NCBI GenBank assembly: GCA_903813345.2
Contig: CAIIXF020000007.1
Coordinates: 33,696,538 to 33,760,537, forward strand
Source: Owenia fusiformis
Lineage: Eukaryota > Annelida > Polychaeta > Sabellida > Oweniidae
Length of the DNA stretch: 64,000 nt
Reading direction: 5' to 3'
This document shows, piece after piece, positions 4,940-63,260 of this stretch (position 1 is its first letter; each line of letters starts with the position of its first letter). A program made the position numbers and the translations under genes. The notes under the pieces were generated by a model. The model saw nothing but the letters and a program-made list of their open reading frames with translations, had not been told where the DNA came from and did no database searches.

Positions 4940-5125
4940 GTATACATCTGTATACATTGTATTGCATCATATTGCACTGCATTGTATTGCATCATATTGC
5001 TCTGCATTGTATTGCATCATTTTGCACCGCATTGTATTACATCATATTGCACCACATTGTATTGCATCATATTGCACTGCATTGTATAACATCATATTGC
5101 ACTGCATTGTATTGCATCATATTCC
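4940..5125. repeat. Third block of the pentamer satellite
   Basis: A short further block of the same TTGCATCATATTGCACTGCA-type satellite, followed by a second copy of the outer unique block. It shows that satellite end plus unique block were tandemly duplicated in the right arm only. The first right-arm copy has lost 33 bp that are present in the second copy. Confidence 0.85.
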
Positions 5126-25437: not shown

Positions 25438-25439
25438 AA

Positions 25440-26588: not shown

Positions 26589-26590
26589 AA

Positions 26591-28456
26591 CTAGATTTTG
26601 GAAATTGAACGAGTTCAATTTCAGACTCCAGATCTAGACTTTTTTTAGCCGAGTCATCCAGAATAAGCCAAGTCATCCAAAATGAACTAAGTCATCAAGA
26701 AAAAGAAGGATGGATGGATGGATGAAAAAGGAAGGAAGGATAGGATAGAATAGGAAGGAACGATAGGATAGAATAGGAAAGAAGGATAGAATAGAATAGG
26801 AAGAAGGGATAGAATAGGAAGGAGAGGAAACGAAGCAAGGGTAGATAGGAAGGATAGGATAGGATCAGAAAGGAAGGATGTATGCATTTTTCAATATTTT
26901 CTTCTCTACTTTGACTTTCTATCAGGATACCATCAGATCGATTTTTCTTGAAATTTCAAAACGCCATAACTTCCGAACCGGAAGTCGGATCGAAATTTGA
27001 TTTGTAGATTCAGATTCCTGACAAAATTCTCCCCCTAATTCATAACGCATACGTTAAATTTGGCGAATTCTTATTTTGACCTACTTTTCGGACACGCCAT
27101 AACTTCGGAACCGGAAGTCGGATTGAAATTTGGTTTGTAGATTCGGATTTCTGAGAAAATTCTTCTCTTAATTCATAACTCAAACGTTAAATTTGGAGAA
27201 CTTTTTATTTTGACCTACTTTTCAGACACCATATCTCAAAAGTGGGTCAAAATACTTTCTGACGGCAAAAGGCTAACGCTATTAGCACACTCTTGGCTAC
27301 ATGTATACACAATTTCGAGGAATATAATTAAAGTGTAGTGTCAGAATCGCAAAAATAAGGATAAACTATGAATTTGACCTCGATTTTGACCTAGGGATTT
27401 TTGTGTCCAAATTTTGAAGTTAGGTAGCCTTCGAGGTTCCCTCCTTTCATTGGCTTTCATTATTTTAAGCTGTACTTAGTCTTTATCTCGTATTTTACAC
27501 TTCAAAAAATTTTTTGTTCCCATTGACATAACATGGGGCACTAAATTTAGCGATTTTTGAGCTTTCAAAATGTAATAACTTCCGAACCGGAAGTCGGATC
27601 GAAATTTGGTTTGCAGATTCGGATTCCTGAGAAAATTCTATACTTAATTCATAACTCAAATGTTAAATTTGGAGAACTTTATATTTTGACCTACTTTTCG
27701 GACACCATATCTCAAAAGTGGGGCAAAATACTTCCTGACGGCAAAAGGCTAACACTATAAGCACACTCTTGGCTACATGCATACAAAATTTCGAGGAATA
27801 TAATTAAAGTGTAGTGTCAGAATCGCAAAAATAAGGATAAACTATGAATTTGACCTAGATTTTGACCTAGGGATTTTTGTGTCCAAATTTTGAAATTAGG
27901 TAGCCTTCGAGGTTCCATTCTTTCATAGGCTTTCATTATATTTAGCTGAACTCAGTCTATATTTCGTATTTTTCACTTCAAAAAAATCTTTTTCCCCATT
28001 GACTTAACATGGGCACCAAATTTATCGATTTTTGAGCTTTCAAAACGCCATAACTTCCGAACCGGAAGTCTGATTCGAATTTGGTTTTCAGATTCGGAAT
28101 CCTGAGAAAATTTTCTATAAGACCAATATCCTGGACATTTGATTCTTTTTTTTGGACCTCGTTTTCGGACACTGATATCTCGAAATCGGTTTGAGATATC
28201 AAAAAACTAAATCGACCCTAGGTTTCCTACTTTTTTATAAGGAACACAATGAAAAAAACCCGGATCAAAAATATTGAAGGACGACCGAGAAAATCGAAAA
28301 AAGTGACAAAGTACTGGATTTGACCTAGTTCTTGACCTTTGACCTAGATAAAAATTTGACCCAATTTCCGAGGAACTAGATTCTGGACCTAAATTGACCA
28401 AATGACTGACTTTACTGAAAACCTTATGGTTATTGAGAAAACTGGGTTAGAATAAG
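26591..28456 (-). mobile_element. Helitron-like copy C
   Basis: CTAG 26591-26594. Instead of the AGCTGAGT minisatellite it has a GGAAGGATAGGATAGAATA purine microsatellite (26695-26885). Two core units; DR1 at 28333-28345. Confidence 0.6.
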
Positions 28457-28458
28457 AA

Positions 28459-30430
28459 CTAGACTTTGGAAATTGAACGAAGTTCAATTTCAGACTCCAG
28501 ATTTAGACCATTTTTAGCCGAGTCATCCAGAATAAGCTGAGTCATCCAGAAAAAGATGGATGAATAAAATAGGAAGGTAGGATAGGATAGAACGATAGGA
28601 ACGATAGGATAGAATAAGAAAAAAGGATAGGATAGAACAGAATAGGAAGAAAGGATATGATAGGAGAGGACAGGAAGGAAAAGATACGAAGGAAGGATAG
28701 ATAGGAAGGATAGGATAGGATAAGATCAGATAGGAAGGATGGATAAATTCTTCAATATTTTCGACTTCTCTACTCTTGACTTTCTATCAGGATACCATCA
28801 GATTGATTTTCCGAAATTTCAAAACGCCATAACTTCCGGACCGGAAGTCGGATCGAAATTTGATTTAAAGATTCGGATTCTTGACAAAATTCTACCCCTA
28901 ATTAATAACTCATACGTTACATTTGGTGAATTTCTATTTTGACCTACTTTTCGGACACGCTATAACTTCGAAATCAGAAGTCGGATCGAAATTTGGTTTG
29001 CAGATCCGGATTTCTGAGAAAATTCTACCCCAAAGTCATAACTCAAACATTAAATTTGGAGAACTTTTTATTTTGACCTACTTTTCGGACACTATATCTC
29101 AAAAGTGGGTCAAAATACTTCTGACGGCAAAAGGCTAACACTATTAGCACACTCTTGGCTACATGTATACACAATATCGAAGAATATAATTGAAGTGTAG
29201 TGTCAGAAACGCAAAAATAAGGAAAACCTTTGAATTTGACCTAGATTTTGACCTAGGCATTTTGGTGTCCAAATTTTGTAACTAACTGGCTTTTGAGGTC
29301 CCCTTCTTTTGAAGGCTTTCATTAAATTAAGCTGAACTCAGTCTATATTTCGTATTTTTCACTTCAAAAAAATCTTTTTTTCCCATTGACTTAGCATGGG
29401 CACCAAATTTAGCGATTTTTGAACTTTAAAACGACATAATTTCCGAACCGGAAGTCGGATCGAAATTTGATTTGCAGATTCGGATTCCTGGGAAAAGTCT
29501 CCTCTTATTCTTTAGCTCATATGTTAAATTTGAAGAATTTTTCAGGTTGACCTACTTTTCGGACACCATATCTCAAAAGTGGGTCAAAATACTTTCTGAC
29601 GGCAAAAGGCTAACACTATTAGCACGCTTTTGGCTACCTGTATACAAGATTTTGAAGAAAATTATTAAAGTGTAGTGTCAGAATCGTAAAAATAAGGAAA
29701 ACTATGAATTTGACCTAGAATTTGACCTAGGCATTTTGGTGTCCAAATTTTGAAGCTAGGTAGCTTTTCAGGTCCCCTTCTTTTATACGCATTCATTATG
29801 TTAAGCTATGCTCAGTCTATATCTTGTATTTTACACTTCGAAAAAGTCTTTTTTCCCATTGGCTTAACATGGGCACCAAATTTAGCGATTTCAAAACGCT
29901 ATAGCTTCCGAACCGGAAGTCAGACCGAAATTTGGTTTGCAGATTTGGATTCCTGAGGAAATTTTACACTTATTTCATTACTCATACGTTGAATTTGGAG
30001 AACTTTTTCGTTTGACCTACTTTCCGGACGCAATATCTCAAAATGGGTAGAAGTAATCAAAAAACTGATTACTCAACGTCGAATCGTCTTTTTCTTGGCT
30101 ACACGTTAAAAAAAATTTTTTTGAAAAATATTGAAAAATGACAAAGATAATTAACAAAATGATAATTTGACCTAGATTTTGACCTTTGACCTAGATAAAA
30201 AATTGACCCAATTTCCGAGAAACTAGATACTGGACCTAAATAGACCATATACAGGACTTGACTCAATGTCTTCTAGTTAAGGAGAAAACGTGTGTAGAAG
30301 AATAATAAAGAAGAAGAATACTGACAAAAGTAATAGACTCCAGATTTACATCTGGAGTCTAATAATAAGCAGAAGAAGAATAAGAAAACTGACGAAAACA
30401 ATAGACTCCAGATTTCATCTGGAGTCTAAT
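28459..30430 (-). mobile_element. Helitron-like copy D
   Basis: CTAG 28459-28462, a purine GGATA microsatellite (28555-28745), two core units, DR1 at 30180-30192, and two AGACTCCAGAT hairpins at its far end (30335-30425). Confidence 0.6.
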
Positions 30431-30432
30431 AA

Positions 30433-33223
30433 CTAGATTTGTGAAATTGAACAAGTTCAATTTAAGACTCCAGATTTATTTGACCTAGATAGATCAGTAA
30501 AGAGCTGAGTAAGTAACTGAGTAATTAGTTGAGTAAGTACCTTAGTAGTAGTTGAGTAAGTAACTGGGTAAAAAGCTGAGTTAGTAGCTGAGTAAGTAGC
30601 TAAGTAAGTAATAACTAATTAAGCAATTGAATAAGTAGTCAAATAAGTAGCTGAGTAGGTAGGGAGGTAAAGTAGGGTATGTAGGACTTTTTGAAAGTTT
30701 ATTTGATCAATCTGCATCGTGAATACTGGCAAGTGCGAATTTCAAACTTCAAAATGGCTTAGAATCTTAACCCGGGGTCGGATTGCAATTTTGATTTCAG
30801 ATCCGGATTCCTTAGGAAATTATGCCCCTAATTCATAACTCATACGTTAAATTTGGAGAACTTTTTATTTTGACCTACATTTCGATCACCAGATCTCAAA
30901 AGTGGGTCTAAAAACTTCTTGACGGCAAAAAGTTAACATTATAAGCACACTCTTTGCTACATGTATACAAAATTTCGAAGAATATCATTGAAGTGTAGTG
31001 TCCAAATTGCAAAAATAAGAAAAAACTAAGAATTTGACCTAGATTTTGAACTAGGTATTTTGGTGTCCAAATTTTGAAGGAAAGTAGCTTTTGAGGTCCC
31101 CTTCTTTTATGGGCTTTCATTATGTTTAGCTGTACTCATTCTATATCTTGTATTTTTACACTTCAAAAAATTATTCGGTCCCATTGATTTAACATGGGGC
31201 ACCAAATTTAGCGATTTTTGAGCTTTCAAAACATCATAACTTCTGAACAAGATGTCGTATCGAAATTTGGTTTGCAGATTCGGATTCCTGACAAAATTCT
31301 ACCCCTAATTCATAACTCATACGTTAAATTTAGATTTTTTTATTTTGACCTACTTTTTGGACACGCCATAACTTCCGAACCGGAAGTCGGATCGAAATAT
31401 GGTTTGCAGATTCCGATTCCTGACAAAATTCTACCCCTGATTCATAACTCATAAGTTAAATTTGAAGAATTTTTTATTTTGACCTACATTTGGGACATCA
31501 TATCTCAAAAGTGGGTCAAAATACTTCCTGACGGCAAAAGGCTAACACTATTAGCACTCTCTTGGCTACATGTATACACGATTTCGAAGAATATAATTAA
31601 AGTGTAGTGTCAGAATCGCAAAAATAAGGAAAAACTTTGAATTTGACCTAGATTTTGACCTTGGCATTTTTGTGTCCAAATTTTTAAGCTAGATGGCTTT
31701 TGAGGTCCCCTTCTTTTAAAAGCTTCCATTATATTTAGCTGAACTCAGTCTATATTTCGTATTTTTCACTTCAAAAAAAAGATAATTGACATAACATGGG
31801 ATATCAAAATACCAATTTTTTAATTTTTCAAAACGCCATTACTTCCAAACCAGGTGTCGGATTGAAATTTGATTTGCAGATTCGGATTCCTGAGAAAATT
31901 CTACCCTTAATTCATAACTCATACGTTAAATTTGGAGAAACTTTCATGTTGACCTACTTTTCGGACACTATATCTCAAAAGTGGGTCAAAATACTTTCTG
32001 ACGGCAAAAGGCTAACACTATTAGCACACTCTTTGCTACCTGTATACAAAATTTTGAAGCAAATAATTAAAGTGTAGTGTCAGAATCGCAAAAATAAGTT
32101 AAAACTATAAATTTGACCTAGATTTTGACCCAGGCATTTTGGTGACCAAATTGTGAAGCTAGCTAGCTTTTGAGGTCCCTTTATTTTATAGGCTTTCATT
32201 ATGTGAAGCTGTACTCAGTCTTTATCTCATATTTTACACTTCAAAAAAATCTTTTTTCCCATTGCCATAACATGGGGCACCAAATTTAGCGATTTTTGAG
32301 CTTTCAAAACGACATAACGACATAACTTCCAAACCTAAAGTCGGATTGAAATTTGGTTTGCAGATTTGGATTCCTGAGAAAATTCTACCCTTTATTCATA
32401 ACTCATACGTTAAATTTGGAGAACTTTTTAGTTTGACCTACTTTTCGGACACCATATCTCAAAAGTGGGTCAAAATACTTTCTGACGGCAAAAGGCTAAC
32501 ACTATCAGCACACTCTTGGCTACATGTATACAAAATTTCGAAGAATATAATTAATCTGTAGTGTCAGAATCGCAAAAATAAGAAAAAACTTTGAATTTGA
32601 CCTAGATTTTGACCTAGGCATTTTGGTGTCCAAATTTTTATGAAAACAAGGTCTTGTGGTCCCTTTCTTTTATGGGCTTCCATTATGTTTAGCTGTGCTG
32701 AGTCTATATCTCGTATTTTACACTTCAAAAAAATATTTTTTCCCATTGAATTAACATGGGGCACCAAATTTAGCGATTTTTGAATTTTCAAAACGCCATA
32801 ACTTCTGAACCGGAAGTCAGATCGAAATTTTGTTTTCAGATTCGGAATCCTGAGAAAATTTCCTATAAGACTGATATCCTAGACATTGGATTCTGAGAAA
32901 TTTTTTTTGGACCTCGTTTTCGGACACTGATATCTCAAAATCGGTTTGAGATACCAAAAAACTAAATCGAACCTAGGTTTTCTACTTTTTTATGAGGAAC
33001 ACAATGAAAAAAACCAGGATCAAAAATATTGAAGGACGACCGAGATAATGGGAAAAAGTGACAAAGTACTGGATTTGACCTAGTTCTTGACCTTTGACCT
33101 AGATAAAAATTTGACTTAATTTCCCAGAAAGCCGGTTTCAGTCTCTAGTTAACCATGTAAGTTGGATTAAGTAAGCTGTTATAGTTGACGAGAAATTTGG
33201 TGAGGAGGAAGAAAAATAATAAT
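30433..33223 (-). mobile_element. Helitron-like copy E (longest)
   Basis: CTAG 30433-30436, an AGCTGAGTAAGT-type minisatellite (30490-30690), four core units (signatures near 30915, 31530, 32000 and 32478) and DR1 at 33088-33100. Confidence 0.6.
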
Positions 33224-36617: not shown

Positions 36618-38524
36618 CTAGATTTTGGAAATTGAACGAGTTCAATTTCAGACTCCAGATCTAGACTTTTTTTTAGCCAAGTCATCCAGAATAAGCCAAG
36701 TCATCCAAGATAAGCTAAGTCATCAAGAAAAAGAAGGATGGATGGATGGATGGATGAAAAAGGAAGGAAGGATTGGATAGTATAGGAAGGAACGATAGGA
36801 TAGAATAGGAAAGACGGATAGAATAGAATAGGAAGAAGGGATAGAATAGGAAGGAGAGGATACGAAGCTAGGGTAGATAGGAAGGATAGGATAGGATCAG
36901 AAAGGAAGGATGGATGCATTTTTCAATATTTTCTTCTCTACTCTTGACTTTCTATCAGGATACCATCAGATCGATTTTTCTTGAAATTTCAAAACGCCAT
37001 GACTTCCGAACTGGAAGTCGGATCGAAATTTGGTTTGCAGATTCGGATTCCTGACAAAATTCTACCCCTAATTCATAACTCATACGTTAAATTTGGAAAT
37101 TTTTTATTTTGACCTACTTTTTGGACACGCCATAACTTCCGAACCAGAAGTCGGATCGAAATTTGGTTTGCAGATTCAAATTCCTGACAAAATTCTACCT
37201 TTAATTCATAACTCATATATTAAATTTGGAAAACTCTTTATTTTGACCTATTTTTCGGACACTATATCTCAAAAGTGGGTCAAAATACTTTCTGACGGCA
37301 AAAGGCTAACGCTATTAGCACACTCTTGGCTACATGTATACACAATTTCGAGGAATATAATTAAAGTGTAGTGTCAGAATCGCAAAAATAAGGATAAACT
37401 ATGAATTTGACCTAATTTTTACCTTGGCATTTTGGTGTCCAAATTTTGAAGTTAGGTAGCCTTCAAGGTTCCCTTCTTTCATAGGCTTTCATTATTTTAA
37501 GCTGTACTTAGTCTATATCTCGTATTTTACACTTCAAAAAATCTTTTTTCACATTGACATAACATGGGGCACCAAATTTAGCGATTTTTGAGCTTTCAAA
37601 ATGTCATAACTTCCGAACCGGAAGTCGGATCGAAATTTGGTTTACAGATCCGGATTCCTGAGAAAATTCTATACTTAGTTCATAACTCACACGTTAAATT
37701 TGGAGAATTTTTTATTTTGACCTACTTTTCGGACACCATATCTCAAAAGTGGGGCAAAATACTTTCTGACGGCAAAAGGCTAACACTATTAGCGCACTCT
37801 TGGCTACATGTATACAAAATTTCGAAGAATATAATCAATCTGTAGTGTCAGAATAGCATAAATAAGAAAAAATTTTGAATTTGACCTAGATTTTGACCTA
37901 GGCATTTTGGTGTCCAAATCTTGAAGCTAGATGGCTTTAGAGGTCCCATTCTTTTAAAAGCTTTCATTATATTTAGCTGAACTCAGTCTATATTTCGTAT
38001 TTTTCACTTCAAAAAAATCTTTTTTCCCATTGACTTAACATGGGCACCAAATTTAGCGATTTTTGAGCTTTCAAAACGCCATAACTTCCAAACAGGAAGT
38101 CTGATTTGAATTTAGTTTTCAGATTCAGAATCCTGAGAAAATTTCCTATAAGACTAATATCCTGGACATTTGATTCGGACAACTTATTTTTGGACCTCGT
38201 TTTCGGACACTGATATCTCGAAATCGGTTTGAGATATCAAAAAACTAAATCGAACCTAGGTTTTCTACTTTTTTATTAGGAACACAATGAAAAAAACCCG
38301 GATCGAAAATATTGAAGGACGACCGAGAAAATCGAAAAAAGTGGCAAAGTACTGGATTTGACCTAGTTCTTGACCTTTGACCTAGATAAAAATTTGACCC
38401 AATTTCCGAGGAACTAGATTCTGGACCTAAATTGACCAAATGACTGACTTTACTGAAATCCTTATGGTTATTGAGAAAACTGGGTTAGAATAATAAGAAG
38501 AAGAAGAAGAAGAAGAAAAAGAAT
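36618..38524 (-). mobile_element. Helitron-like copy H
   Basis: CTAG 36618-36621, a purine GGATA microsatellite (36730-36920) closely matching that of copies C and I, two core units, DR1 at 38371-38383. Confidence 0.6.
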
Positions 38525-38526
38525 AA

Positions 38527-40201
38527 CTAGATTTTGGAAATTGAACGAGTTCAATTTCAGACTCCAGATCTAGACTTTTTTTAGCCGAGTCATCCAGAAT
38601 AAGCCAAGTCATCCAAAATAAGCTAGGTCATCCAGAAAAGGATGAATGGATGGATGGATGAAAAAGGAAGGAAGGATAGGATAGAATAGGAAGGAACTAT
38701 AGGATAGAATAGGAAAGAATGATATAATAGAATAGGAAGAAGGGATAGAATAGGAAGGATAGGAAGGAGAGGATACGAAGCAAGGGTAGATAGGAAGGAT
38801 AGGATAGGATCAGAAAGGAAGGATGGATGCATTTTTCAATATTTTCTTCTCTACTCTTGACTTTCTATCAGGATACCATCAGATCGATTTTTCTTGAAAT
38901 TTCAAAACGTCATAACTTCCGAACCGGAAGTCGGATCGAAATTTGATTTGCAGATTCGGATTCCTGACAAAATTCTACCCCTAATTCATAACTCATACGT
39001 TAAATTTTGCGAATTTTTATTTTGACCTACTTTTCGGACACGCCATAACTTCGGAACCGGAAGTCGAATTGAAATTTGGTTTGCAGATTCGGATTTCTGA
39101 GAAGATTCTTTTTTTAATTCATAACTCAAACGTTAAATTTGGAGAACTTTTTATTTTGACCTACTTTTCGGACACCATATCTCAAAAGTGGGTCAAAATA
39201 CTTTCTGACGGCTAACACTATAAGCGTACTCTTGGCTACATGTATACAAAATTTCGAAGAATATAATTAATCTGTAGTGTCAGAATCGCAAAAATAAGGA
39301 AAAACTTTGAATTTGACCTAGATTTTGACCTAGGCATTTTGGTGTCCAAATTTTGAAGCTAGATGGCTTTTGAGGTCCCATTCTTTTAAAAGCTTTTATT
39401 ATATTTAGCTAAACTCAATCTATATTTCATATTTTTTACTTCAAAAAAATCTTTTTTCCCATTGACTTAACATGGGCACCAAATTTAGCGATTTTTGAGC
39501 TTTCAAAACGCCATAACTTCTGAACCGGAAGTCCGATCTAAATTTGGTTTTCAGATTCGGAATCCTGAGAAAATTTCCTATATGTCTAATATCCTGGACA
39601 TTTGATTCGGAGAACTTTTTTTTGGACCTTGTTTTCGGACACTGATATCTCGAAATCGGTTTGAGATATCAAAAAACTAAATCGACCCTAGGTTTTCTAC
39701 TTTTTTATAAGGAACACAATGAAAAAAACCCGGATCAAAAATATTGAAGGACGACCGAGAAAATCGAAAAAAGTGACAAAGTACTGGATTTGACCTAGTT
39801 CTTGACCTTTGACCTAGCTAAAAATTTGACCCAATTTCCGAGGAACTAGATTCTGGACCTAAATTGACCAAATGACTGACTTTACTAGAAACCTTATGGT
39901 TATTGAGAAAACTGGGTTAGAATAATAAGAATAATAAGAATAAGAAAACTGACGAGAACAATAGACTCCAGATTTTCAATCTGGAGTCTAATAAGAAAAC
40001 TGACGAAAACAATAGACTCCAGATTTCATCTGGAGTCTAATAATAATAAGAAAACAGGCAAAAGCAATAGACTCCAGATCTCAATCTGGAGTCTAATAAG
40101 AAAACTGGCAAAAGCAATAGACTCCAGATTTTCAATCTGGAGTCTAATAATAATAAGAAAACTGGCAAAAGCAATAGACTCCAGATTTTCATCTGGAGTC
40201 T
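38527..40201 (-). mobile_element. Helitron-like copy I, with five terminal hairpins
   Basis: CTAG 38527-38530, a purine microsatellite (38640-38830), one full core unit, DR1 at 39803-39815, then five tandem hairpin units to 40201. It abuts the unique DNA upstream of the PDF gene. Confidence 0.6.
39963..40201. repeat. Five tandem AGACTCCAGAT hairpins
   Basis: Hairpins at 39963-39989, 40014-40038, 40069-40094, 40119-40145 and 40176-40201, each with an 11-12-bp stem, separated by AATAAGAAAACTGGCAAAAG-type spacers (period 50-57 bp). Each is one unit of the element end, amplified in place. Confidence 0.85.
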
Positions 40202-46127: not shown

Positions 46128-46286
46128 CCATAAAAATGATATATACTCGAATCCCTTTCATTTGTAACTGCATCAAAAAGAATGTGGAGATGATGTGACT
46201 GTACGAATGTACAAAATTGAAATGAATGCAAGAAAATATTACGTTTTTAGTTACGAAATCATACAATACTGTTATATTATGTAGTT

Positions 46287-46292
46287 TTATTG
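46287..46292 (-). terminator. Bursicon polyA signal AATAAA (minus strand)
   Basis: TTTATT on the + strand, about 345 bp after the bursicon stop codon in its direction of transcription. First canonical hexamer downstream of that stop. Confidence 0.55.
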
Positions 46293-46635: not shown

Positions 46636-46810
46636 TTATGGACGAACACTGTTGAGTACATTTTCGAGGTTGTTATGTTTTACAATTTGTCGATCCAAAC
46701 AGGGGCGACAAATACACTCACGGGCATATTTTATTAGTCGTCTGATATGTCTGCCTCCATCACACGAGAGGATTACTTGCTGTACACCAGATTTCGTCAG
46801 TTGGCAGCAA
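46636..46810 (-). CDS. burs: Bursicon exon 3 (C-terminal half of the knot)
   Basis: Acceptor CTTTTATAG on the minus strand; it begins T-TGC-TGC-CAA, completing the split ACT codon. 57 residues and TAA at 46638-46636. It carries CCQ, SC and ARECICRPC. A 20-residue tail follows the last cysteine, longer than in most insect alpha subunits. Confidence 0.88.
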
Positions 46811-49800
46811 CTATAAAAGTAAGAAATTCACATCACAGATTACCCATTACTGCTTATAGGCTAATGGTAAAGTTCTTTGTTATTTTTTATCTGAATTATC
46901 TGTATCTAAATAAGAGTAACCGAATTAAAAGATCCAAATAAGAGTAAGAGAATTAATAGTACAATAACGTCATTTCTAAGGGCAATATAGTGAAATATTG
47001 GACCGAGGGCCGAAGGCCCAAGGTCCAATATTTCACTATATTGCTCGCAGAAATGACGTTATTAGTATTATTACCACCGTTAACGACCAGGACTGAAACA
47101 GCAAGAAAATCTTACGCATTGAACGATATCTAATTTCCCGGGGAAAATTGCCGGTCCAGAATATATTCTAGACCGGTCCATATGGACCACCACTATGACG
47201 TCACACATTTCTCAGGTCGATATAGTAAAATGGGTGACAGGTCATCTCAACCCCAAGTCATCTCAACCCCAAGTCATCTCAACCCAGTCCAACTCAACCC
47301 CACGTCAACTCAACCCCAAGTCAACTCAACCCTGTAAAACTCCACCCCAGTAAAACTCAACCCTATTCATTTGTGCAATGTCTAATTTAATTTCTTATTA
47401 AGAATAATTTAAATTATTAATTTCTGAAAATCTAGCGTTTTGCATGATACTTTGAATAGAAAGTTGTAAAAGTATTAAAAAAACGGTTAAGCTCAAGGAT
47501 AATTCATCAAGTTGTCACTATTATTGAATTTAAGACATATTTTGAAATCAGATTTTAGATAATTTAGAAATAATTAACAATGTAATATAACTTTTTATTT
47601 ATATGAACATGCTTTAACAAAATCATTAACATTTAGTAATTTATAAGAAAGCATAGACGTAGCCAGGAGGAGTTCGCACACACCCTCCCCCCAATTTTGA
47701 AGGAAGTTGCATCATTTTTTGTCAAAACATATCTTTTTTTGGCTCGCTTATGCCACGATCGGCACCCCCTGACTGAAAACCTAATTTTTTGGGCGATCGC
47801 ATCCCTCCTGACTGAAAGCTGGCTATGCCCCTGGAAAGCAATGGTCATGTTCCAGTTTTCCAAATAATCAAGAGTGTCAACCTCATAGGGATTACAACAA
47901 AACAAACGTATTAGCAAGATTAATAAAATTACCCATATTTTAATCCTATTAGTACCATGTTGACATTTTGGAGATAAACTCATTATTAACTATCATACAA
48001 AAAGGCAGTGGTCTAAGAATGAAAATCACATACTGAATCATTCGAATTATTTTTATGAAATAAACTTTCTTATAAGTTTATCAATATATAGAAATATAGG
48101 GGTTGAGTTTTACTGGGGTTGAGTTTTACAGGGTTGAGTTGACTTGGGGTTGAGTTTTACTGGGGTTGACTTGACTTGGGGTTGAGTTGACTTGGGGTTG
48201 AGTTTTACTGGGTTGAGTTGACTTGGGGTTGAGATGACCAGGAAGCGTAAAATGAACGCCTTCTAAACTAGCACTAAAACCCCTAGAACTGGCCCGGCAA
48301 GGTGGTAATAATAGATCTAAATAAGAGTTCAAGAGAATTAAAAGATCTTAATAAGAGAAAGAGAATTAAAAGATCTAAATAAGAGTAAGAGAATTAAAAG
48401 ATCTTAATAAGAGAAAGAGAATTAAAAGATCTAAACAAGAGTAAGAGAATTAAAAGATCTTAATAAGAGAAAGAGAATTAAAAGATCTAAACAAGAGTAA
48501 GAGAATTAAAAGATCCAAATAAGAGTAAGAGAATTAAAATATCTAAATAAGAGTAAGAGAATTAAAAGATCCAAATATGTGTAAGAGAATTAAAAGATCT
48601 AAATAAAAGTAAGAGAATTAAAAGATCCAAATAATCTTGCATTCTGGCGGCCATCTTGGAAGTTTTTGGATAAATCTTGGCATCGTGATTCCAGGAAAAC
48701 CACTAAACAGATTTACTTCAAATTTTCACACATGTTATATGGTATGAAGTTCTAGAGCTGATTAACTTTTCGGTGGCCATCTTGCATTCTGGCGGCCATC
48801 TTGGAAGTTTTTAGATAAATCTTGTCATCGCGATTCCAAGAGAACCACTTAACAGTTTTACTTCAAATTTTCACACATGTTACATGGTAAGAAGTTAAAG
48901 AGCTGATTCACTTTCCGGCGGCCATCTTGCATTCCGACGGCCATATTGGATTTTTTAGATATATCTTGGCATCGCGATTCCAGAAAAACCACTTAAAAGA
49001 TGTACTTCAAATTTTCACACATGTTATGTGGTAAAAAGTCCTAGCTCTCAATAGTTTTTCGGTGGCCATCTTGCATTCTGGCGGCCATCTTGGAAGTTTT
49101 AAGATAAATCTTGTCATTACGATTTCAGGAAAACCAAACAGATTTACTTCAAATTTCCACACATGTTAGATGGTAAGAAAGTCTAAAGGTGATTGACTTT
49201 TTGGTAGCCATCTTGCACTCTGGCGGCCATCTTGGAAGTTTTTAGATAAATCTTGTCATCATAATTCTAGGAAAACCCCTTAACAGATTTACTTCAAATT
49301 TTCACACATCATGTTACATGGTATCTTGCATTCTGTCGGCCATCTTGGAAGTTTTTATTAGATAAATCTTGTCATCACGATTCCAGGAAAACCACTTAAC
49401 AGTTTTACTTCAAATTTTCACTCATGTTACATGGTAAGAAGTTATAGAGCTGATCAACTTTCAGGTAGCCATCTTGCATTCTGGCAGCCATCTTGGAAGT
49501 TTTAAGATAAATCTTGTCATCGCGTTTCCAGAAAAACCACCTAACAAATTTGCTCCAAATTTTCACACATGTTACATTGTAAGAAGTTCTACAGCTGATC
49601 GATCAATTTTTCGGTGGCCATTTTTCATTCTAGCAGCCCTCTTGAACGTTTTTAGATAAATCTTGTCATCGCTACTCCAGGAAAACCACTTAAACTGATT
49701 CTCTTAAAATTTTTACACATGTTACATGGTAAGAAGTTCTAGAACTTTTCGTTTGTACTTTATACCATATAATAGATGAATTGAGTGTATGATATCAATT

Positions 49801-52800
49801 GACTTTTAGAATTTATAAAGGTCTCGTGACATGGTGCACAATGAAAGGTTGTCCATACATATAGGCCACATACATATATTTTCTCTTAAAAGAGCTTCAA
49901 TTTCGTAATATACTCAGATCAATGCCAATTAAGCATACATTTCACTCTAAAAAATCACTGTGCATTGTTGGATTTCAAAGAAATGTTTGACGTTTTCAAT
50001 AATCCATTTTCGTGCCTTTTGCCCCTGTTTATATCACTATAAAAGCTGTTTTCTGTATGAGGGAAGACTTGTTTTCGTATAGCACAGTCTGTATAGGTTG
50101 ATACACAATATACATGTTCTATCTATTCCATAGAATTTTGTGCCTCAACGTATCCATACAGGTTGTAGAGCTACTATTGACAATATCTATCATTTGGTTT
50201 CAAGTTTTAAAAACTTAAATGCTTCATACACCTTTTAAACCACACTTAGGTAGCAACAGAATAGAATGAACTGTGTTTTATTTTTAAGAATACCCAGCTG
50301 TAACAAAGAGGGGTGCATTATTTTATACCCACTCACTTCTCAATACACTTACATGTACCTTATTCCCATCTTCATTTTTAATAGAGAGATTTCGAATACC
50401 AGTATAACGTAAATTTTTTGAAGCCGTTTGATTACGTCATCATTTATTGAAGAGCTATAGAATACGTCCATAAGTGTGATATTCTCACATATGGACGACG
50501 ATTTATAAGAATATCACACTTATGGACGTACATGTATAGAGCTGCGCAACAAATGCATGATGACGTAAACAAACACTTCATAAGTTAACCGTTACGGGAA
50601 TAGAGAGATTTCGATCATATGAAAGCATACGTTATGTTTACGCGTATAGGCTATTAGCTATACGCTATAAGTATAAGTGAATCAAGTTTGTCGTTTATGC
50701 AAAAATATGGACTTATACGTATCGAAATGTATATTTCATTGATCAATTCTTATGATCTTTTCACCAAGAATGAATCGTTTTCTCCTCCAGATTCCTCGTT
50801 TATAAGGTGGATAAGATAGTAATATGACTTCGTGCCAAATATCACCGTAATTTCTCACAAATAACTATTTAAACGAGATAAGTATTTATTCACTTATATG
50901 AACAACGTTTATTTTTAAATAGATAGAGCTGCGCGATAAGTGATGACATAGTACACACACGTTACACGTTAATAAACATTGTAAACAGCTATAAGTGAGT
51001 TGCGAAATCTCTCTATTATTAAAATGATGCTACTTACTTATAGAATTATTCAGAATTTAATTACAAATCATATTTATGTGAAGGTCGTAGTCAAGGTTGT
51101 TTATCATACTAATCATGGGATTTCAACTAGAATTGAAAGCCCATGTACTAATGAAACAATAGACAAAATAATTTTAAGGGGGAATGTGTATGCGACACAT
51201 ACCGAGTAAGAAAATCGTGAAAATAATTTTGTAATTCATTCACAGGCGAGGTATGTATTAAACCTTTTACAGGGTGGTCCAAAAAAGTGAACCCCCGCAA
51301 CGGGCCATATTTCCCTTATTACCTTTAGGAATCCTTTCATATTTTTACATGTTGTAGAGGAAGGTCTTAAATATTTGTTGGTACCATCCATTTTTCTTAG
51401 TCTTGCAATTTGCAGAAATTATAAGCCCTAACCAAATGTTACTGAAAATGGATAAAATGTGATTTTCAACTTCCGCGATTCTTCAACCCTTCGAGACCCT
51501 TCCCCTGACAATTTTTTTAGCTGCAGTCTTACATCTAGCATCCTACCTCTATTAGTTGCAAAGATATTGTGATCCAAAGAAATGTACTAAGTATCCATAG
51601 ACGAAAGTTTTTCCCAGTGAAATCGCAACATACCCCTATATGATCTTGAAATGTCAATATCTTCATTAATCATGGACCAATTCTAATGAATTATGGCTCA
51701 AAACATTGAATATTAGATTTCTTTTGCTTTTCTAAAGATATTTGGTGAAGGGCTTCTCAGATTCTTAGTCACAGGGGGCAACTTTGTCCCCCTCTAACCA
51801 TTTGTGTGGGTGACATGCCCCTTAACTGTTGAACAGTTAAAACTGCTTCAAAATGATCAATGAACATGTGAAATGTGTTTTCTGCTCAAAAGTATCCCAT
51901 TTGTCATGTGGTAGGGTTTTAAACTTGTATCTCTAACTGAAAGCTGTTTTAAGAATATCAACGTGCTTCAACAATTTCCATGAATTACATTGGTAAAATT
52001 CTGCACAATCCAATTTTCAGGCATGTTTGTTTAAGTCTTGTAATTTCTTCACAATTCAAGACTGAGAATAAATTATGGCATCAACAAAATTTTTAGACCT
52101 TTCTCTACAACATGTGGTAATATGAGGCAATTCATGCAAGTATTAAGGAAAATATAGCCTGTTGCAGGGGTTTATTTTTTTGACCACCCTGTATATATCA
52201 TCATTCTCAGTCTACTTCATGCGATATTGGTGATGAAGATCATGAGTACCCCATTGATACTAATTATTATCTTCAAATCTGTTGTATCGCTTAATAAAGA
52301 TAGGAACCATATACTTTCATGATATCACTAGGTTTTGTATTGGAATGGACTTCAAAAAGATCTTCAAGGGTTCATTATACAAATCCGAGACATATACAAC
52401 TAGTCAAAATGCACATACTTTGATATAATTGAGGACTCAACATATCTACGTTTAAAAATCATAAAAATACATGTATACAGGGCGTATAAAAAACGCAACA
52501 AGCAGTTATCTCATAAAATGGCAAAACTAGTTATGACGGTATCTGGTCAACTCGTACCCAAGATAACTCGTACCCAAGTCAAGTCGTACCCAAGACAACT
52601 CGTACCCAAGACAACTCGTACCCAAGACAACTTGTACCCAAGTATATGTTTTGTTTTGAATCAAGTGTTGGGCTGGGAATGGGTATAGATATACATATTA
52701 TAATGGTTACGTACAGTTCAGAATAGTTTGAAGTATGTAGAAGAGTTTTTGGAAGAAATCGATTGAATTTTTTGACCAAATATATTGGTCACAGATTCAG

Positions 52801-55051
52801 ATGTTCGAGGGAGGAGATTTATGTTTATTCCACATATTCATAATCATTGTTCACAATATTAGTGGTATTTTTGTATGTTAATGAGTGTTTGGAACAAGTA
52901 TCAGATCTAATTCATCTTGAAATATGGTATTATCAAAAATATAAAGATTTTCAAAACTTGCGCCTATTTCTTATTAAACAGATAATCTATTTAGGATTTC
53001 ATATTATCAGATTAAAGAATGATAATGATGATAATGATAATGATTTTTTTAATAATCATTTATTTCATATATATACTATACATAAAATAATACAATAATA
53101 ACGTTTGACTAGGTTACAAGTAATATTATTGTCAAACTGAAAACCTTAATGTAGTTACATTCATAATTTTTACTTTACAATGATAATGATAAGTCACATT
53201 CATAAAATTAAGCAATAAAAAATGTTCTAAATAATATGAATATCAAATATTATTTTGGTACTTATTCATACATGATATAATACATTTTGCATGCATGTGC
53301 TCAAATATAATCCAATAAAGTTCCAAATGGAAAAGAAATTAACAGATTAAAATTTCTCTAAATGCACTAAGCTAAATTATTACCACCTTGCCGGGCCAGT
53401 TCTAGGGGTTTTAGTGCTAGTTTAGAAGGCGTTCATTTTACTATATCGACCTGAGCAATATGTGACGTCATAGTCGTGGTCAAGAATGCATCTCAGACCG
53501 GTCGAGAATGCATTTAACGACCGGCAATTTTCCCCGGGAAACAAGATATCATTCAGTGCGTAAGATTTTCTTTTCTTGGGCCTTCGGCCCTCGGTCCAGT
53601 ATTTCACTATATTGCCCGCAGAAATGACGTTATTGTACCATTAATTGTTTGATTCATTTGTTGAAAAGTTACTGTTGTAATTATATTTATTTATATATAT
53701 GTATTACAAAAAAAGTTGAGTCTTCTAAATTCAGAAAAAATATTGAGGCACATTATAACATTAAACATTTTGACACAGACTCAATTTGTTTTCTTATATG
53801 CACCCATAATACTGAAAATCAACTTGGGTACGAGTTGTCTTTGGTACAAGTTGTCTTGGGTACGAGTTGTCTTGGGTACGAGTTGACTAGGAAGCGTTAT
53901 GACTACATCAATTTCATTCGATGTACCATAAAGCCATGTCCCTCCTCTTTGCAACGATATACCTGTATGTTATTCATTCACGTGTGGTCATGGTTCAAGT
54001 TTCAAATATTGCAAAAATCAGTGCAAGAGCTAAGTGCCAATGGAAGTTCTCCTGACTTGAATTGTTGTGACTTTTCTTTTGGAGCTATCTCAGGAGCATC
54101 TGTGCTTACAATTCCTTCACCAGATATTGCACTTGGGCCCCGTACACTGACTTTCGCGATGTTTATAAATTGCTCCCAAGCTAATTTTGGCCCACTTTGC
54201 AAAAGGAATGATTACTCGCCCAATCATGACCAAATATCAATGAATGATATATCATTGGAAGGAGGAGACACATGGCTTTATGGTACATTGAATGAAATCA
54301 ATGCTGTTATCACTGGTTTTGTGCTCTTCCGAGATAACAATCTGTTGCGTTTTTTTATGCGCACTGTATAACAATATTTAGCACTAATTTATCAACTTAC
54401 AGAGAAATACCTAGGGTGCTGTAAACCTGTTTGGGAATCAAAATTAAGTGCAATTCAATTTTGAGAATTTTAGAAAAGCACTTGATTTCGCGAAAAACGT
54501 ATTTAAAACCTAATATGATAATAATTAAATTGGAATAATGACAGTGACTAAATGAATAAATTAAATAATCCAGCTTACGTGCAAACTTTATCCATTGAGG
54601 TAAGGTCTGCATTTATGGAGCTGTAAGACGCACATTGGCCCCTACATCCCATCGACAGTACCTGGGTAGGACGGCAGGACTTTGCGAACTCCGGGGGCGG
54701 CTCCACATGCAACATCAAAGGTTTTACGCTGCATTCTTTATTATGTGCCAATATATTGTCGGATAAACCCTTTACATTTGTCACACTTGCTACTGAGAGA
54801 ATGAGCAAAATGCCTAAAAATTAAGTTTAATCTCAAGCAATGTGCTAGTGATAGGTGGTATCAAGATGTGGAACTAAATTTTTGCGTGAAATAAACATGG
54901 GCTGATTTTTCGAATGTTTTACGAAGTCCTTAATTTACATGTACATTGTGTACTAACGAAAATATCATATATGCATATTCCACTAACTTTAAAACGGTAT
55001 TATGTAATACTCACGTATTGCGCATTCTTCAAATGTGCTATCTGTCATCAT
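46636..55051 (-). CDS. burs: Bursicon alpha-type cystine-knot hormone (three coding exons)
   Basis: Exons 55051-55015, 54813-54579 and 46810-46636 join in frame (split codons CGC and ACT) to 148 aa. Residues 13-27 are the hydrophobic signal core. The mature region has 11 cysteines (40, 59, 69, 73, 90, 92, 93, 107, 123, 125, 128), the bursicon number. Key motifs: GCRGQCASY (knot C-x-G-x-C followed by ASY), VCTCC, and ECICRPC near the end, the hallmark of the alpha subunit. C1-C2 is longer than in insect alpha subunits. In arthropods bursicon alpha pairs with a beta subunit and activates the LGR2 receptor in tanning; in lophotrochozoans its role is less clear. Intron 2 is about 7.8 kb and full of nested transposons. 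No beta-subunit gene was found here. Confidence 0.88.
46905..46951. repeat. Left remnant of the 28-bp minisatellite
   Basis: Two units of the AATAAGAGTAAnnGAATTAAAAGATCY repeat that resumes at 48313. The element at 46952-48312 is therefore inserted inside this array. Confidence 0.7.
46963..47063. repeat. About 100-bp palindrome
   Basis: AATAACGTCATTTCTAAGGG faces its complement around the centre GAGGGCCGAAGGCCCAAGG, with few mismatches. It forms the left end of the surrounding MITE. Confidence 0.8.
47233..48246. mobile_element. Tandem-repeat foldback element with 8-bp duplication, copy 1
   Basis: Flanked by GTAAAATG at 47225-47232 and 48247-48254. Ends GGTGACAGGTCATCTCAACC and GGTTGAGATGACCAGGAAGC. 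Each end is an array of about 15-16-bp units (GTCAACTCAACCCCAA and relatives), inverted at the two sides (47240-47368 and 48098-48240). The middle is AT-rich with no transposase; a minus frame at 47633-47983 is unrecognised. An 8-bp duplication fits hAT-like or P-like integrases, but the termini match no family I can name. Confidence 0.75.
48313..48632. repeat. 28-bp minisatellite
   Basis: About 11-12 copies of an AGAGAATTAAAAGATCTAAA-based 28-bp unit, with alternating TCTAAA, TCTTAA and TCCAAA variants. Two further copies lie beyond the inserted element at 46905. Confidence 0.85.
48636..49745. repeat. 145-bp satellite, about eight units
   Basis: Units start CTTGCATTCTGGCGGCCATC at 48636, 48781, 48926, 49070, 49212, 49325, 49473 and about 49621 (142-148 bp, one shortened to 113). 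Each has GGCGGCCATCTTGG, GATTCCAGGAAAACC and TTCACACATGTTA blocks. It is noncoding, in bursicon intron 2. Confidence 0.85.
49746..50380. other. Noncoding intron sequence
   Basis: Part of bursicon intron 2, AT-rich; no exon, array or inverted repeat recognised. Confidence 0.45.
50381..51015. mobile_element. MITE with ATAGAGAGATTTCG termini
   Basis: ATAGAGAGATTTCG at 50381 faces CGAAATCTCTCTAT at 51015. An extra copy of the terminus is at about 50601, so it may be a composite. It contains the hairpin at 50463-50530. No coding frame. Confidence 0.6.
50463..50530. repeat. Hairpin with perfect 23-bp arms
   Basis: TACGTCCATAAGTGTGATAT (50463 onward) pairs perfectly with 50508-50530 over 23 bp. 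Further outer pairing TACGTCATCAT/ATGATGACGTA (50434 and 50558) extends the stem. Confidence 0.85.
51270..52191. mobile_element. Tc1/mariner-type MITE, TA duplication (922 bp)
   Basis: Termini CAGGGTGGTCCAAAAAAGTG and its complement, TIRs of about 100 bp with mismatches, TA on both sides. Terminal CAGGGTG is shared with the 13356 element, but the rest differs. No transposase frame. Confidence 0.8.
52538..53895. mobile_element. Tandem-repeat foldback element with 8-bp duplication, copy 2
   Basis: Flanked by GTTATGAC at 52530-52537 and 53896-53903. Ends GGTATCTGGTCAACTCGTAC and GTACGAGTTGACTAGGAAGC. Terminal arrays of a 16-bp unit, GTACCCAAGACAACTC, lie inverted at the two sides (52552-52640 and 53820-53890). 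Its tail AGGAAGC, its GGTCAnCTC subterminus and the 8-bp duplication match copy 1, while the repeat unit differs. It carries a reversed 53376-53647 MITE inside. Confidence 0.75.
53376..53647. mobile_element. Reversed copy of the 46952 MITE, empty-site version
   Basis: Reverse complement of the 46952-48312 element without the nested foldback: AATTATTACCACCTTGCCGG ... GAAATGACGTTATTGTACC. The junction CATTTTACTATATCGACC shows the uninterrupted target of copy 1, proving the 8-bp duplication there. Confidence 0.75.
54000..54200 (+). pseudogene. Mariner/IS630-type transposase remnant
   Basis: The + frame gives a KSVQELSANGSSPDLNCCDF stretch and then loses similarity, consistent with a frameshift relative to the 22010-22201 copy, which continues FFWSYL. 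Only the region around one catalytic aspartate survives. The longer open frame spanning 53649-54371 crosses element boundaries and is not a gene. Confidence 0.5.
54367..54572. other. Intron sequence, nothing recognised
   Basis: AT-rich segment of bursicon intron 2 between the mariner relic and exon 2. Confidence 0.4.
54579..54813 (-). CDS. burs: Bursicon exon 2 (signal core and first knot half)
   Basis: The acceptor TAATTTTTAG precedes 54813; the exon runs 235 nt to the donor TGCAC|GTAAGC. It encodes ILLILSVASV, then ECSVKP, KSCRP, GCRGQCASY and DKVC. Reading through the donor gives an immediate stop (ACG TAA), which is why it looks like an isolated 77-codon frame. The TTG at 54808 is not the start. 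Confidence 0.85.
55015..55051 (-). CDS. burs: Bursicon exon 1 (tentative start)
   Basis: ATGATG at 55051-55046, 12 codons plus one base, ending at the donor C|GTGAGT; the phase matches exon 2 exactly. The N-terminus MMTDSTFEECAI is acidic, unusual for a signal peptide, although Arg13 then precedes the hydrophobic core. A TATAAT sits about 65 bp upstream. A different first exon farther upstream remains possible. Confidence 0.45.
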
Positions 55052-57650: not shown

Positions 57651-57828
57651 AATTGAGTCACCCTGTATAAACTGTACCCTGGATTGTACACCCCTCAACC
57701 TTGCTGTGTGCGCAGAAATGGGCTGGTATTCACCATATGAGTGGCAGATACTTGTAGCAACTCGATACAAAGATCGTTGTGAAGCCATGGATCCCACTAG
57801 ATTATCATGGCATCACCTGTTTAGGTAA
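57651..57828 (+). other. Open + frame of unknown identity
   Basis: One + frame stays open about 58 codons from 57651, including C-x2-C-x3-C near its start and MGWYSPYEWQILVATRYKD later, and closes at a donor-like AG|GTAATG. The minus strand also has a 105-codon frame here. I recognise neither. It may be an exon or transposon residue. Confidence 0.2.
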
Positions 57829-61426: not shown

Positions 61427-62794
61427 TTATATTCCCCTCATTGCACGTCCAAGGAAGTATAGCTCAATGTCCTCCAAGGATTTACCTTTTGTTTCTGGCA
61501 CAGTTTTCCACACAAAAATAGTGGCAATAAAGCAAAATAATCCAAACAACCAAAATGTCCCATCCTGTCCCAGAGATTCTTGCATTAAAATGAACTGCTT
61601 TGTGATGATGAAACCCACAAGCCAATTGGTGAAGCATGAAATGCTACTAGCTGTTCCACGTGCCCTTACTGGGAAGATTTCTGAATTCATCAACATTGGA
61701 ATGGGACCCCAGCTAATCGCAAATGACATTGTAAACAACACAAGGCTCCCAACAGCTACCCAACCAGCCTCTGATTTGACATGGTAGAAACCGCCAAATA
61801 TAAAACATGCTATTGTCATCCCAAGTCCACCAATTTGAAGCAGTGTTCTTCTTCCAGCTCTGTCTATTATTAAAGAAGAGAATAATGTTCCAATCACTTG
61901 AACAGCACCAATGATTACTGTGGATTGATTTCCATTCTTAAATCCAGCACTCTCAAATATTGTTACTGTATAAAACATAACAATGTTTATTCCTGTCATT
62001 TGTTGAAAAATCATAAGTCCAATAGCAGCTTTTAATGGCTGATATAGTTCTGGCCGTTTGAATTCTCTCCAAGACATGGTTTCATTAGGGTCCATACTGT
62101 CCTCAATATCACGATACTCGTCTTCAATGTCACTCTCTGGACCTCTCAACCAGGTCAACACTTTCAATGCATCCTGTTTACGATTTTTGAGTGCATACCA
62201 TCTTGGTGTCTCTGGCATAAATAGCATCAGTAGAAAGCTTAGGAGGGGTGCTACAATTCCAATATTTGCCAGTTGTCGCCATGACACATACATTCCACAT
62301 ACATAAACAAACATGATTCCGAATGTCACAGATAATTGTACACATGTCCCTAACGCACCTCTGATCTCTTTAGGAGCCATCTCTGAAATGTATACTGGAG
62401 TGCAAGACATAATCATTCCACATCCCATTCCACAAAGAATTCGACCGATGTAAAATGTTGTCACATTCATTCCTGCAGATATAAACGACCAGCCACAAAT
62501 GAAAGGAATGCTAGTGAAGATAAGGGCTCTTTTTCGTCCATATTTTTCCATTACAAATGCAACGAAAGGGCTCCCCAAAACGCCTCCTATTGACATTAGC
62601 GATGCAAACCATGTTGACTGCTCCTCGTTTAGAAAACCCCAGGCTATAAGTGAAGGGTTTGCCGGTGAGCTATACCCAATTACATAACCGAACGACAATG
62701 GCCCAAGGAAGGCGCATAATGATGCAATGATGAGATTCCGTTTATAGGCATTACTTCGAGAATCAACAAGTCGTATTCCATCATTTTGTATCAT
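61427..62794 (-). CDS. SLC2/Tret1-type facilitated sugar transporter (intronless)
   Basis: 455 aa, single exon, complete. A plasma- or organelle-membrane 12-helix MFS permease for hexoses or trehalose, family class III (GLUT6/8, Tret1). Motifs: YGRKR after TM2 (85-89), YISEMAP...RG (135-146) at TM4, PETPRW (194-199) after TM6, a charged central loop (200-250), QQMTGIN in TM7 (264-270), DRAGRR (311-316), GPIPMLMNSEIFPVRARG (363-380) and PETKGKS (433-439). The start ATG at 62794 gives a cytosolic N-terminus of about 20 residues. The C-terminus is short, ending AMRGI. No polyA AATAAA lies near; ATTAAA (minus) is at 61123. Lack of introns suggests a retrocopy or ancestral intron loss. Substrate cannot be told from sequence. 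Confidence 0.92.
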   Translation of the reverse strand: MIQNDGIRLVDSRSNAYKRNLIIASLCAFLGPLSFGYVIGYSSPANPSLIAWGFLNEEQSTWFASLMSIGGVLGSPFVAFVMEKYGRKRALIFTSIPFICGWSFISAGMNVTTFYIGRILCGMGCGMIMSCTPVYISEMAPKEIRGALGTCVQLSVTFGIMFVYVCGMYVSWRQLANIGIVAPLLSFLLMLFMPETPRWYALKNRKQDALKVLTWLRGPESDIEDEYRDIEDSMDPNETMSWREFKRPELYQPLKAAIGLMIFQQMTGINIVMFYTVTIFESAGFKNGNQSTVIIGAVQVIGTLFSSLIIDRAGRRTLLQIGGLGMTIACFIFGGFYHVKSEAGWVAVGSLVLFTMSFAISWGPIPMLMNSEIFPVRARGTASSISCFTNWLVGFIITKQFILMQESLGQDGTFWLFGLFCFIATIFVWKTVPETKGKSLEDIELYFLGRAMRGI

Positions 62795-62799
62795 TTTTA

Positions 62800-63260
62800 A
62801 TCGTCAACGTAATGTCATATAAAATTTAAAAGGAACGTGAACTGCTACACGTTAGAAGTTTACAAACACATTCCTATCATGCTAGAAGTGATTTCAGAAT
62901 AAAATTAGATACAAAACATTTATATTTCGTGGAATAAATATCATATATATCAATACATTGGCCTGATGTAAGCTAATATTATCATACAAGAATACAAACA
63001 CATATAACTCAGTTTTGAAATGTAATAGCGTGATCGGACTGTGTACTCGAAGAAGTAGGTCAAAACAAAAACATGTAGATAACAATTGTTTTATAACTAT
63101 CCTGCGTATCCAGACTAACAGTAAGTATATATCATATCATATCAATATTTATTTCAAGTCGGATAATTTTTGTACAATAAACATTAGCACAAGCGCTATT
63201 GACCGACATATAGACATAGAAATCTTTAAAATAAAATTAAACATGTTAGACTAGGTACAG
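62800..63260. other. 5' flank of the transporter, no recognised elements
   Basis: AT-rich. No convincing TATA box, exon or repeat was identified upstream of the start codon. Confidence 0.4.

What the first reader, a model, noticed from the sequence alone, without database searches (positions are those of the whole stretch)
46636..55051. Bursicon alpha-type hormone gene assembled across a transposon-filled intron
Two exons 7.8 kb apart join in frame to give the 11-cysteine bursicon pattern, including GCRGQCASY, VCTCC and ECICRPC. None is evident as a long ORF. The extended C1-C2 spacing and 20-residue tail after the last cysteine are unusual for the alpha subunit.
Basis: partly seen in the sequence, partly recalled or inferred. 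Interest (0 to 1): 0.85.

Follow-up and report, generated by a model that had tools for sequence, protein, structure and literature searches.

The report
Extra bursicon-like hormone gene
A gene in three pieces for a small secreted cystine-knot protein most likely lies here; it resembles one half of the hormone bursicon but looks like an extra relative, because the same genome carries better candidates for bursicon alpha and beta elsewhere.

Summary
Exons at 54813-54579 and 46810-46636 (minus strand) join in frame across a GT-AG intron into an 11-cysteine knot with a 20-residue tail. A possible first exon (55051-55015) adds a start codon. Both exons are the top two window hits for 4 of 14 cystine-knot queries, including recalled fly bursicon alpha; the reversed window gives nothing better than E 0.17. 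The intron holds high-copy repeats.
The genome (498 Mb; fits the annelid Owenia fusiformis, not proven) has better candidates for bursicon alpha (C10, E 2.0e-12) and beta (C7, E 6.9e-10). The window gene is an additional, diverged relative; its best in-genome match is a one-frame gene 1.35 Mb away (40% identity). C1-C2 is longer (18 against 13) and C8-C9 shorter (15 against 20) than in bursicon alpha; the latter equals VWF, mucin-2 and norrin. The tree is unresolved. Second bursicon alpha genes are already reported in Platynereis and two bivalves. New member of a known kind.

The parts
55015..55051 (-). candidate exon 1: start codon and N-terminal part of the signal peptide (MMTDSTFEECAI and first base of the next codon)
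   Evidence: phase fits exon 2. In the upstream 9.2 kb of the window the relaxed scan listed 11 start/donor combinations at 6 donors (peptides up to 45 residues); this donor is the nearest, and 4 of the 6 lie above 61 kb, within or beside the sugar transporter frame. Acidic start is unusual; least certain part
54814..55014 (-). intron 1 (201 bp, GTGAGT...TTTTTAG), inferred
54579..54813 (-). exon 2: signal-peptide-like core (ILLILSVAS), C1 to C5
   Evidence: GC 46% against 34% for the intron
46811..54578 (-). intron 2, 7768 bp, phase 2, GTAAGC...TTTATAG; holds several repeats
46636..46810 (-). exon 3: C6 to C11, 20-residue tail, stop
   Evidence: GC 42%
46286..46291 (-). possible polyadenylation signal AATAAA, about 345 bp after the stop
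   Evidence: motif only
46963..47063 (.). near-palindromic short repeat in intron 2 (arms 46963-47011 and 47015-47063)
   Evidence: I16, 90% complementary; 40 places scored of 1343 candidates, the window among them, all matching, at 95-100% identity on the better strand
51266..52182 (.). repeat element with inverted ends in intron 2
   Evidence: arms 51280-51449 and 52013-52182, 76% complementary; copies of 51266-51900 listed on C1 to C11
52530..53895 (.). composite of high-copy repeats in intron 2, with inverted 16-bp tandem arrays
   Evidence: 142 matches from 40 scored of 3154 candidates, copies of 52530-53026 up to 98-99% identical

Best explanation
A functional gene for a small secreted cystine-knot protein of the bursicon/CTCK kind. 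Three exons on the minus strand give a 148-residue precursor: a signal peptide, then one 11-cysteine knot with no N-glycosylation site. Shown: exons 2 and 3, the frame, the cysteine pattern, the similarity to bursicon alpha, and better bursicon alpha and beta candidates elsewhere in the genome. Inferred: exon 1; that it arose by duplication from a bursicon-alpha-like ancestor, perhaps with L003; that the large intron is removed by ordinary splicing; that the extra cysteine of CxCC links two chains, so the product is a disulfide-linked dimer, either a homodimer or a pair with the bursicon beta subunit; and that as a secreted signal it acts on a leucine-rich-repeat GPCR, most likely of the bursicon receptor class. 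The altered first and last loops suggest a changed partner or receptor.
For: Joined frame, splice sites and 11 cysteines. Pfam DAN 4.4e-5. Whole-genome search with the protein, other than the window itself: L003 1.7e-8 (40%), L004 2.1e-4 (34%), L005 0.546. Scores over 14 references: L003 143, fly BURS 129, L004 119, VWF 113, MUC2 108, norrin 91, NBL1 87, L005 86, PDB 'Bursicon' 72, gremlins 62, 57 and 54, L014 62, fly PBURS 44 (the VWF and MUC2 rows are partial, without C1). CRPC ending shared with L003, L004 and fly BURS. No N-glycosylation sequon; the paper says this of cnidarian Burs/GPH, bursicon and norrin, unlike GPH subunits (PMC4079206 passage). Bursicon alpha and beta candidates present. 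Two bursicon alpha genes reported in Platynereis (PMC3890597 passage) and in a scallop and a pearl oyster (PMC5996578 passage).
Against: C1-C2 of 18 (not 13) and C8-C9 of 15 (not 20) depart from bursicon alpha. Best PDB match is the VWF knot (2.1e-6), then MUC2 (5.7e-4) and NBL1 (0.0012), ahead of the chain named Bursicon (0.0096); that chain is itself not found by recalled fly bursicon alpha at E up to 10, whose best PDB match is NBL1 (0.0021). The tree does not place it; the best tree puts it with L003 (64/38) beside the DAN/gremlin group (55/81). Fly BURS, DAN and Cys_knot searches of the genome do not list it. No good type-B receptor was found with a recalled human LGR5 query: the best hits (31%) are the loci that match TSHR at 56%. 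Exon 1 is uncertain. No expression data.
Confidence: 0.55

Rival explanations
1. A stand-alone norrin-like or VWF/mucin-type CTCK factor: a disulfide-linked extracellular dimer acting on Frizzled/LRP or matrix rather than an LGR hormone.
For: Spacing C4-C5 16, C7-C8 13, C8-C9 15 equals human VWF and MUC2; C8-C9 15 also equals norrin. Best PDB hits are VWF 2.1e-6 and MUC2 5.7e-4. VWF is one of four queries that find both exons. Norrin and bursicon share the same cysteine pattern (PMC4079206 passage).
Against: Scores lower than L003, fly BURS and L004 (VWF and MUC2 rows were partial, lacking C1, which lowers them). Norrin C4-C5 is 23, not 16. Ends CRPC as L003, L004 and fly BURS.
Confidence: 0.22
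2. A BMP antagonist of the DAN/gremlin/NBL1 family, with L003.
For: Pfam DAN 23.9 bits over cut-off 22; L003, its best in-genome match, is best matched in the PDB by NBL1 (6.9e-11); best tree joins window and L003 to this group at 55/81.
Against: CTCC keeps the seventh cysteine that gremlin and NBL1 lack (passage); scores to the three gremlins only 54-62, to NBL1 87; this genome has a clear gremlin elsewhere (L006, DAN 3.8e-34). One survey found nbl1 in a brachiopod and a phoronid but in no other spiralian assembly it used (PMC13121700 passage).
Confidence: 0.13
3. The last exons of a larger mucin/VWF-like protein whose other exons lie outside the part read.
For: VWF-like spacing; such proteins end in this domain (recalled), and L005/L014 in this genome have VWF/mucin-like knots (naming by motif).
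Against: A signal-peptide-like core starts 26 residues before C1 and a start codon in phase lies about 200 bp upstream. None of 8 cysteine-rich segments in the upstream 9.2 kb of the minus strand looked to me like a VWC, VWD or TIL domain (by eye, segments of 30 residues or more only), and a sugar transporter frame lies at 62803-61427.
Confidence: 0.05
4. A decayed or silent copy.
For: Repeat-laden intron; no transcripts seen here; weak donor contexts by a recalled generic matrix (2.2 and 3.1 bits).
Against: Open exons, canonical splice sites, all 11 cysteines kept; no second copy among the 5 matches listed.
Confidence: 0.05

Closest known systems
Bursicon alpha (burs)
   Same: 11-cysteine pattern with CxCC and CxCRPC, CASY after C4 as in fly BURS (recalled), single secreted knot
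   Different: C1-C2 18 against 13, C8-C9 15 against 20; another gene (L004) is the better match to fly BURS
L003 gene, same chromosome, C7:32389886-32390305
   Same: 40% identical; C8-C9 of similar length (16); similar end before and through C.CRPC
   Different: coding region in one open frame; C1-C2 13, C4-C5 20; closest PDB match NBL1
VWF and mucin-2 C-terminal cystine knots
   Same: identical C4-C5, C7-C8, C8-C9 spacing; best PDB scores
   Different: C-terminal domain of very large proteins (recalled); no sign of such a protein just upstream
Norrin (NDP)
   Same: same 11-cysteine pattern and C8-C9 of 15
   Different: C4-C5 23 against 16, C1-C2 15 against 18; lower score
Bursicon A-1/A-2 of Platynereis; two bursicon alpha genes of scallop and pearl oyster
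   Same: second bursicon alpha genes in lophotrochozoans (passages)
   Different: sequences not available here, so orthology with the window gene was not tested

Membership tests
bursicon alpha | 11 cysteines with CxCC and CxCxxC | tested here: met
   pattern also fits norrin, so not decisive
bursicon alpha | loop lengths C1-C2 13 and C8-C9 about 20 | tested here: not met
   18 and 15; fly BURS (recalled) 13 and 20, L004 13 and 20
bursicon alpha | best match of a known bursicon alpha in this genome | tested here: not met
   L004 2.0e-12, L003 7.3e-8, gremlin 0.0028; window not listed (split exons are handicapped; query recalled)
bursicon alpha | tree placement with bursicon alpha | tested here: inconclusive
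   p-AU 0.274 for window+L004+BURS; 0.395 with L003 added
bursicon alpha | pairs with bursicon beta and activates LGR2/rickets | not testable with these tools
   needs expression and assay
DAN/gremlin/NBL1 | seventh conserved cysteine absent | tested here: not met
   window has CTCC; definition from PMC4079206 passage
DAN/gremlin/NBL1 | Pfam DAN profile above cut-off | tested here: met
   23.9 against 22 bits; L005, a VWF-like knot, also passes with 22.5, so weak evidence
DAN/gremlin/NBL1 | tree placement with the DAN/gremlin group | tested here: inconclusive
   window+L003+group in the best tree at 55/81; window alone with the group p-AU 0.309
norrin | loop lengths 15, 9, 3, 23, 1, 0, 13, 15, 1, 2 | tested here: not met
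   C1-C2 18 and C4-C5 16 differ; the other eight agree
VWF/mucin CTCK | C-terminal domain of a large multidomain protein | tested here: inconclusive
   no candidate upstream domain in 9.2 kb, judged by eye, and a signal-peptide-like exon 2 speak against it; no transcript
GPA2/GPB5 (thyrostimulin) | N-linked glycosylation sites, which bursicon and norrin typically lack | tested here: not met
   no sequon in the 148 residues; distinction from PMC4079206 passage. A GPA2-like exon lies elsewhere, C8:11271088 (naming by motif, recalled)

The most novel reading that the evidence does not exclude
An old, third alpha-type cystine-knot hormone of an early-branching annelid, with a bursicon-like first half and a VWF/norrin-like last loop, acting as a homodimer or as an alternative partner of bursicon beta and so forming a second hormone with its own receptor preference.
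Probability: 0.2. Interest if true: 0.45.

Novelty: new member of a known kind. Interest (0 to 1): 0.3.

Why it matters
Bursicon is best known for hardening insect cuticle, yet it occurs in animals that do not moult. An animal with standard alpha and beta subunits plus further alpha-like ones would let one test whether these hormones diversify by swapping partners. It also shows how a short secreted-hormone gene, split by a 7.8-kb repeat-laden intron, hides from searches for long reading frames.

Tried and rejected
Alternative first exons: 11 start/donor combinations at 6 donors passed a relaxed scan of the upstream 9.2 kb, two of them at the donor I kept, one at 57734, eight within or beside the sugar transporter; the stricter scan printed none below 60.5 kb. 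Shared intron position: the bursicon beta exon (L019) seems to end phase 0 just before C5, the window gene phase 2 after C5, and the GPA2-like exon after CC, so no shared intron was seen (donors read by eye). Tree of 15 rows: unresolved, 2 of 12 inner branches starred, both inside the gremlin group; AU tests rejected none of the six groupings tested, and two more were already in the best tree without good support. Receptor: a recalled human TSHR query listed 29 matches, among them two loci at 56% and a third, split one at 48-52% (six of the fetched loci compared); a recalled LGR5 query gave no convincing type-B gene among 20 matches, which does not show absence. Pfam on the two exons separately gave nothing. 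Pfam on six other long window frames gave nothing at E 0.01. ARAGORN found no tRNA in the window. A three-term paper search for bursicon-like, norrin and invertebrate gave no paper. In the held library 2 papers hold both bursicon and Owenia; the passages I read in them do not describe Owenia bursicon.
Full report
Observation. On the minus strand, 54813-54579 and 46810-46636 join in frame over a 7768-bp GT-AG intron. The knot has 11 cysteines, spaced 18,9,3,16,1,0,13,15,1,2, followed by a 20-residue tail. Exon 2 opens with a hydrophobic stretch (ILLILSVAS, mean hydropathy 2.76, against 2.86 and 3.46 for the N-terminal cores of L003 and L004). A candidate exon 1 at 55051-55015 gives a start codon in the right phase; its acidic start makes it the weakest part. 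The model is then 148 residues long, with no N-glycosylation sequon.

Is it more than chance? With 14 reference knots searched against the 64-kb window by tblastn, both exons were the top two hits for 4 of 14: L003 (2.6e-7 and 0.004), L004 (2.6e-4 and 0.093), recalled fly BURS (2.5e-4 and 0.004) and VWF (4.2e-5 and 0.061). Exon 3 alone was the top hit for L005, L014, norrin, MUC2 and the PDB chain named Bursicon; exon 2 alone for GREM2, and tied with another place for NBL1. Fly PBURS, L006 gremlin and GREM1 had neither exon on top. The reversed window gave at best E 0.17. L003, L004 and the VWF fragment had first been found with the joined protein, so of the four only fly BURS is independent of it. 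Pfam gives DAN 4.4e-5 (over its cut-off) and Cys_knot 6.3e-4 (under it) for the joined protein; neither exon alone gives a family, and genome searches with these two profiles do not list the gene. Scores against 6 of 14 references (L003, L004, fly BURS, VWF, MUC2, norrin) beat all 1000 shuffles that keep the cysteines in place; the other scores are reached by 1 (L005), 2 (NBL1), 5 (PDB Bursicon), 8 (L006), 21 (GREM2), 30 (GREM1), 51 (L014) and 245 (fly PBURS) of 1000 shuffles.

Which animal? The genome holds 498,259,871 bases in 525 contigs. C1, C5, C7, C8 and C10 are 37 to 62 Mb long and C18 is 50 kb; match positions show that C2, C3, C4, C6, C9, C11 and C12 reach at least 30 Mb. Owenia fusiformis is reported at 505.8 Mb with 12 chromosome-scale scaffolds (PMC9977687, passage). 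The fit is good but I did not prove the species.

Relatives in the same genome. Recalled fly bursicon alpha finds C10:3698236-3698511 (2.0e-12), L003 (7.3e-8) and gremlin (0.0028), not the window. Recalled fly bursicon beta finds C7:22932292-22932483 (6.9e-10, 48%). Gremlin is at C8:13520194, a GPA2-like exon at C8:11271088 and another knot exon at C8:11279432, and VWF/mucin-like knots at C7:8254690 and C7:31077563; these names go by motif. Weaker Cys_knot matches on C5, C7:35657124, C18 and C1 were not followed. The window protein itself finds L003 (1.7e-8, 40%), L004 (2.1e-4, 34%) and L005 (0.546). In the other direction L003 finds gremlin (2.0e-5), L005 (9.6e-4), L004 (0.0048) and then exon 3 of the window gene (0.0069), so the pair is not a clean reciprocal best pair, though split exons lower the window's score.

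Classification. For: similarity to L003, fly BURS and L004 is highest, and 15 columns are invariant among window, L003, L004 and fly BURS, including CRPC. Against: loop C8-C9 (15) equals VWF, MUC2 and norrin rather than bursicon alpha (20), and C1-C2 is longer; the best PDB match is VWF. The tree of 15 rows has long branches and is unresolved outside the DAN/gremlin group (85/93) and its two starred gremlin branches; AU p values for six groupings range from 0.111 to 0.395, and two groupings (window+L003, 64/38; window+L003+DAN/gremlin, 55/81) are already in the best tree without good support. I therefore file it as a bursicon-like CTCK protein and not as bursicon alpha proper.

Intron. Three stretches are high-copy: 46963-47063 (40 places scored of 1343 candidates), 51266-51900 (95 matches from 40 scored of 1908 candidates for the whole query) and parts of 52530-53895 (142 matches from 40 scored of 3154 candidates). 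Tandem arrays cover 48309-49741. For 49900 to about 51265 no copy elsewhere was listed, apart from one inverted match within itself, but only 40 candidates were scored. Copies at 95-100% identity suggest recent activity of two of these repeats (inference).

Function. Shown: gene structure apart from exon 1, cysteine pattern, relatives. From papers: bursicon is an alpha/beta heterodimer (PMC4772807 passage), insect bursicon receptors are type-B LGRs (PMC11863921 passage), homodimers act too (start of the abstract of PMC8567023 in the listing), and Platynereis larvae express bursicons in the neurosecretory centre (PMC5747525 passage). Inferred: the window product is a secreted disulfide-linked dimer with an LGR-type or related receptor. 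Receptor searches found type-A-like LGR genes but no convincing type-B gene with a recalled human query.

Novelty. Second bursicon alpha genes are reported in Platynereis (A-1, A-2) and in scallop and pearl oyster. In the search listings and passages that I saw no paper described this gene. The case is a new member of a known kind, of moderate interest mainly for its altered loops and for the genome's three alpha-like genes.

Noticed in passing
window 61427-62803 (-): Open frame of 458 residues for a sugar transporter (Pfam Sugar_tr, 2.4e-105), the nearest recognised neighbour upstream of the gene.
   Followed up: partly
window 585-2051 and 3504-5123: Two long arrays of 5- to 50-base units (ATACAATGCA-like), one the reverse complement of the other, facing each other about 1.45 kb apart.
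   Followed up: no
window 10145-12482, 23792-28745, 31235-32860, 36675-38828: Blocks with tandem units of about 122-133 and 474-484 bases, most of them next to ATCCT arrays and a 19-base unit (CTTATTCTGGATGACTCGG), in both orientations.
   Followed up: no
L003, C7:32389886-32390305: One-frame gene for a 140-residue knot protein, a mix of DAN (NBL1 6.9e-11) and bursicon-like features, with CTCC that NBL1 lacks.
   Followed up: partly
L004, C10:3698224-3698520: One-frame bursicon alpha candidate with a long acidic 64-residue tail after the last cysteine.
   Followed up: partly
G000 C8:25756265 and C8:25775714: Two glycoprotein-hormone-receptor-like loci 19 kb apart with the same score and 56% identity to a recalled human TSHR membrane region.
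   Followed up: no
PDB 8enb chain A: Labelled Bursicon, but recalled fly bursicon alpha does not find it at E up to 10.
   Followed up: no
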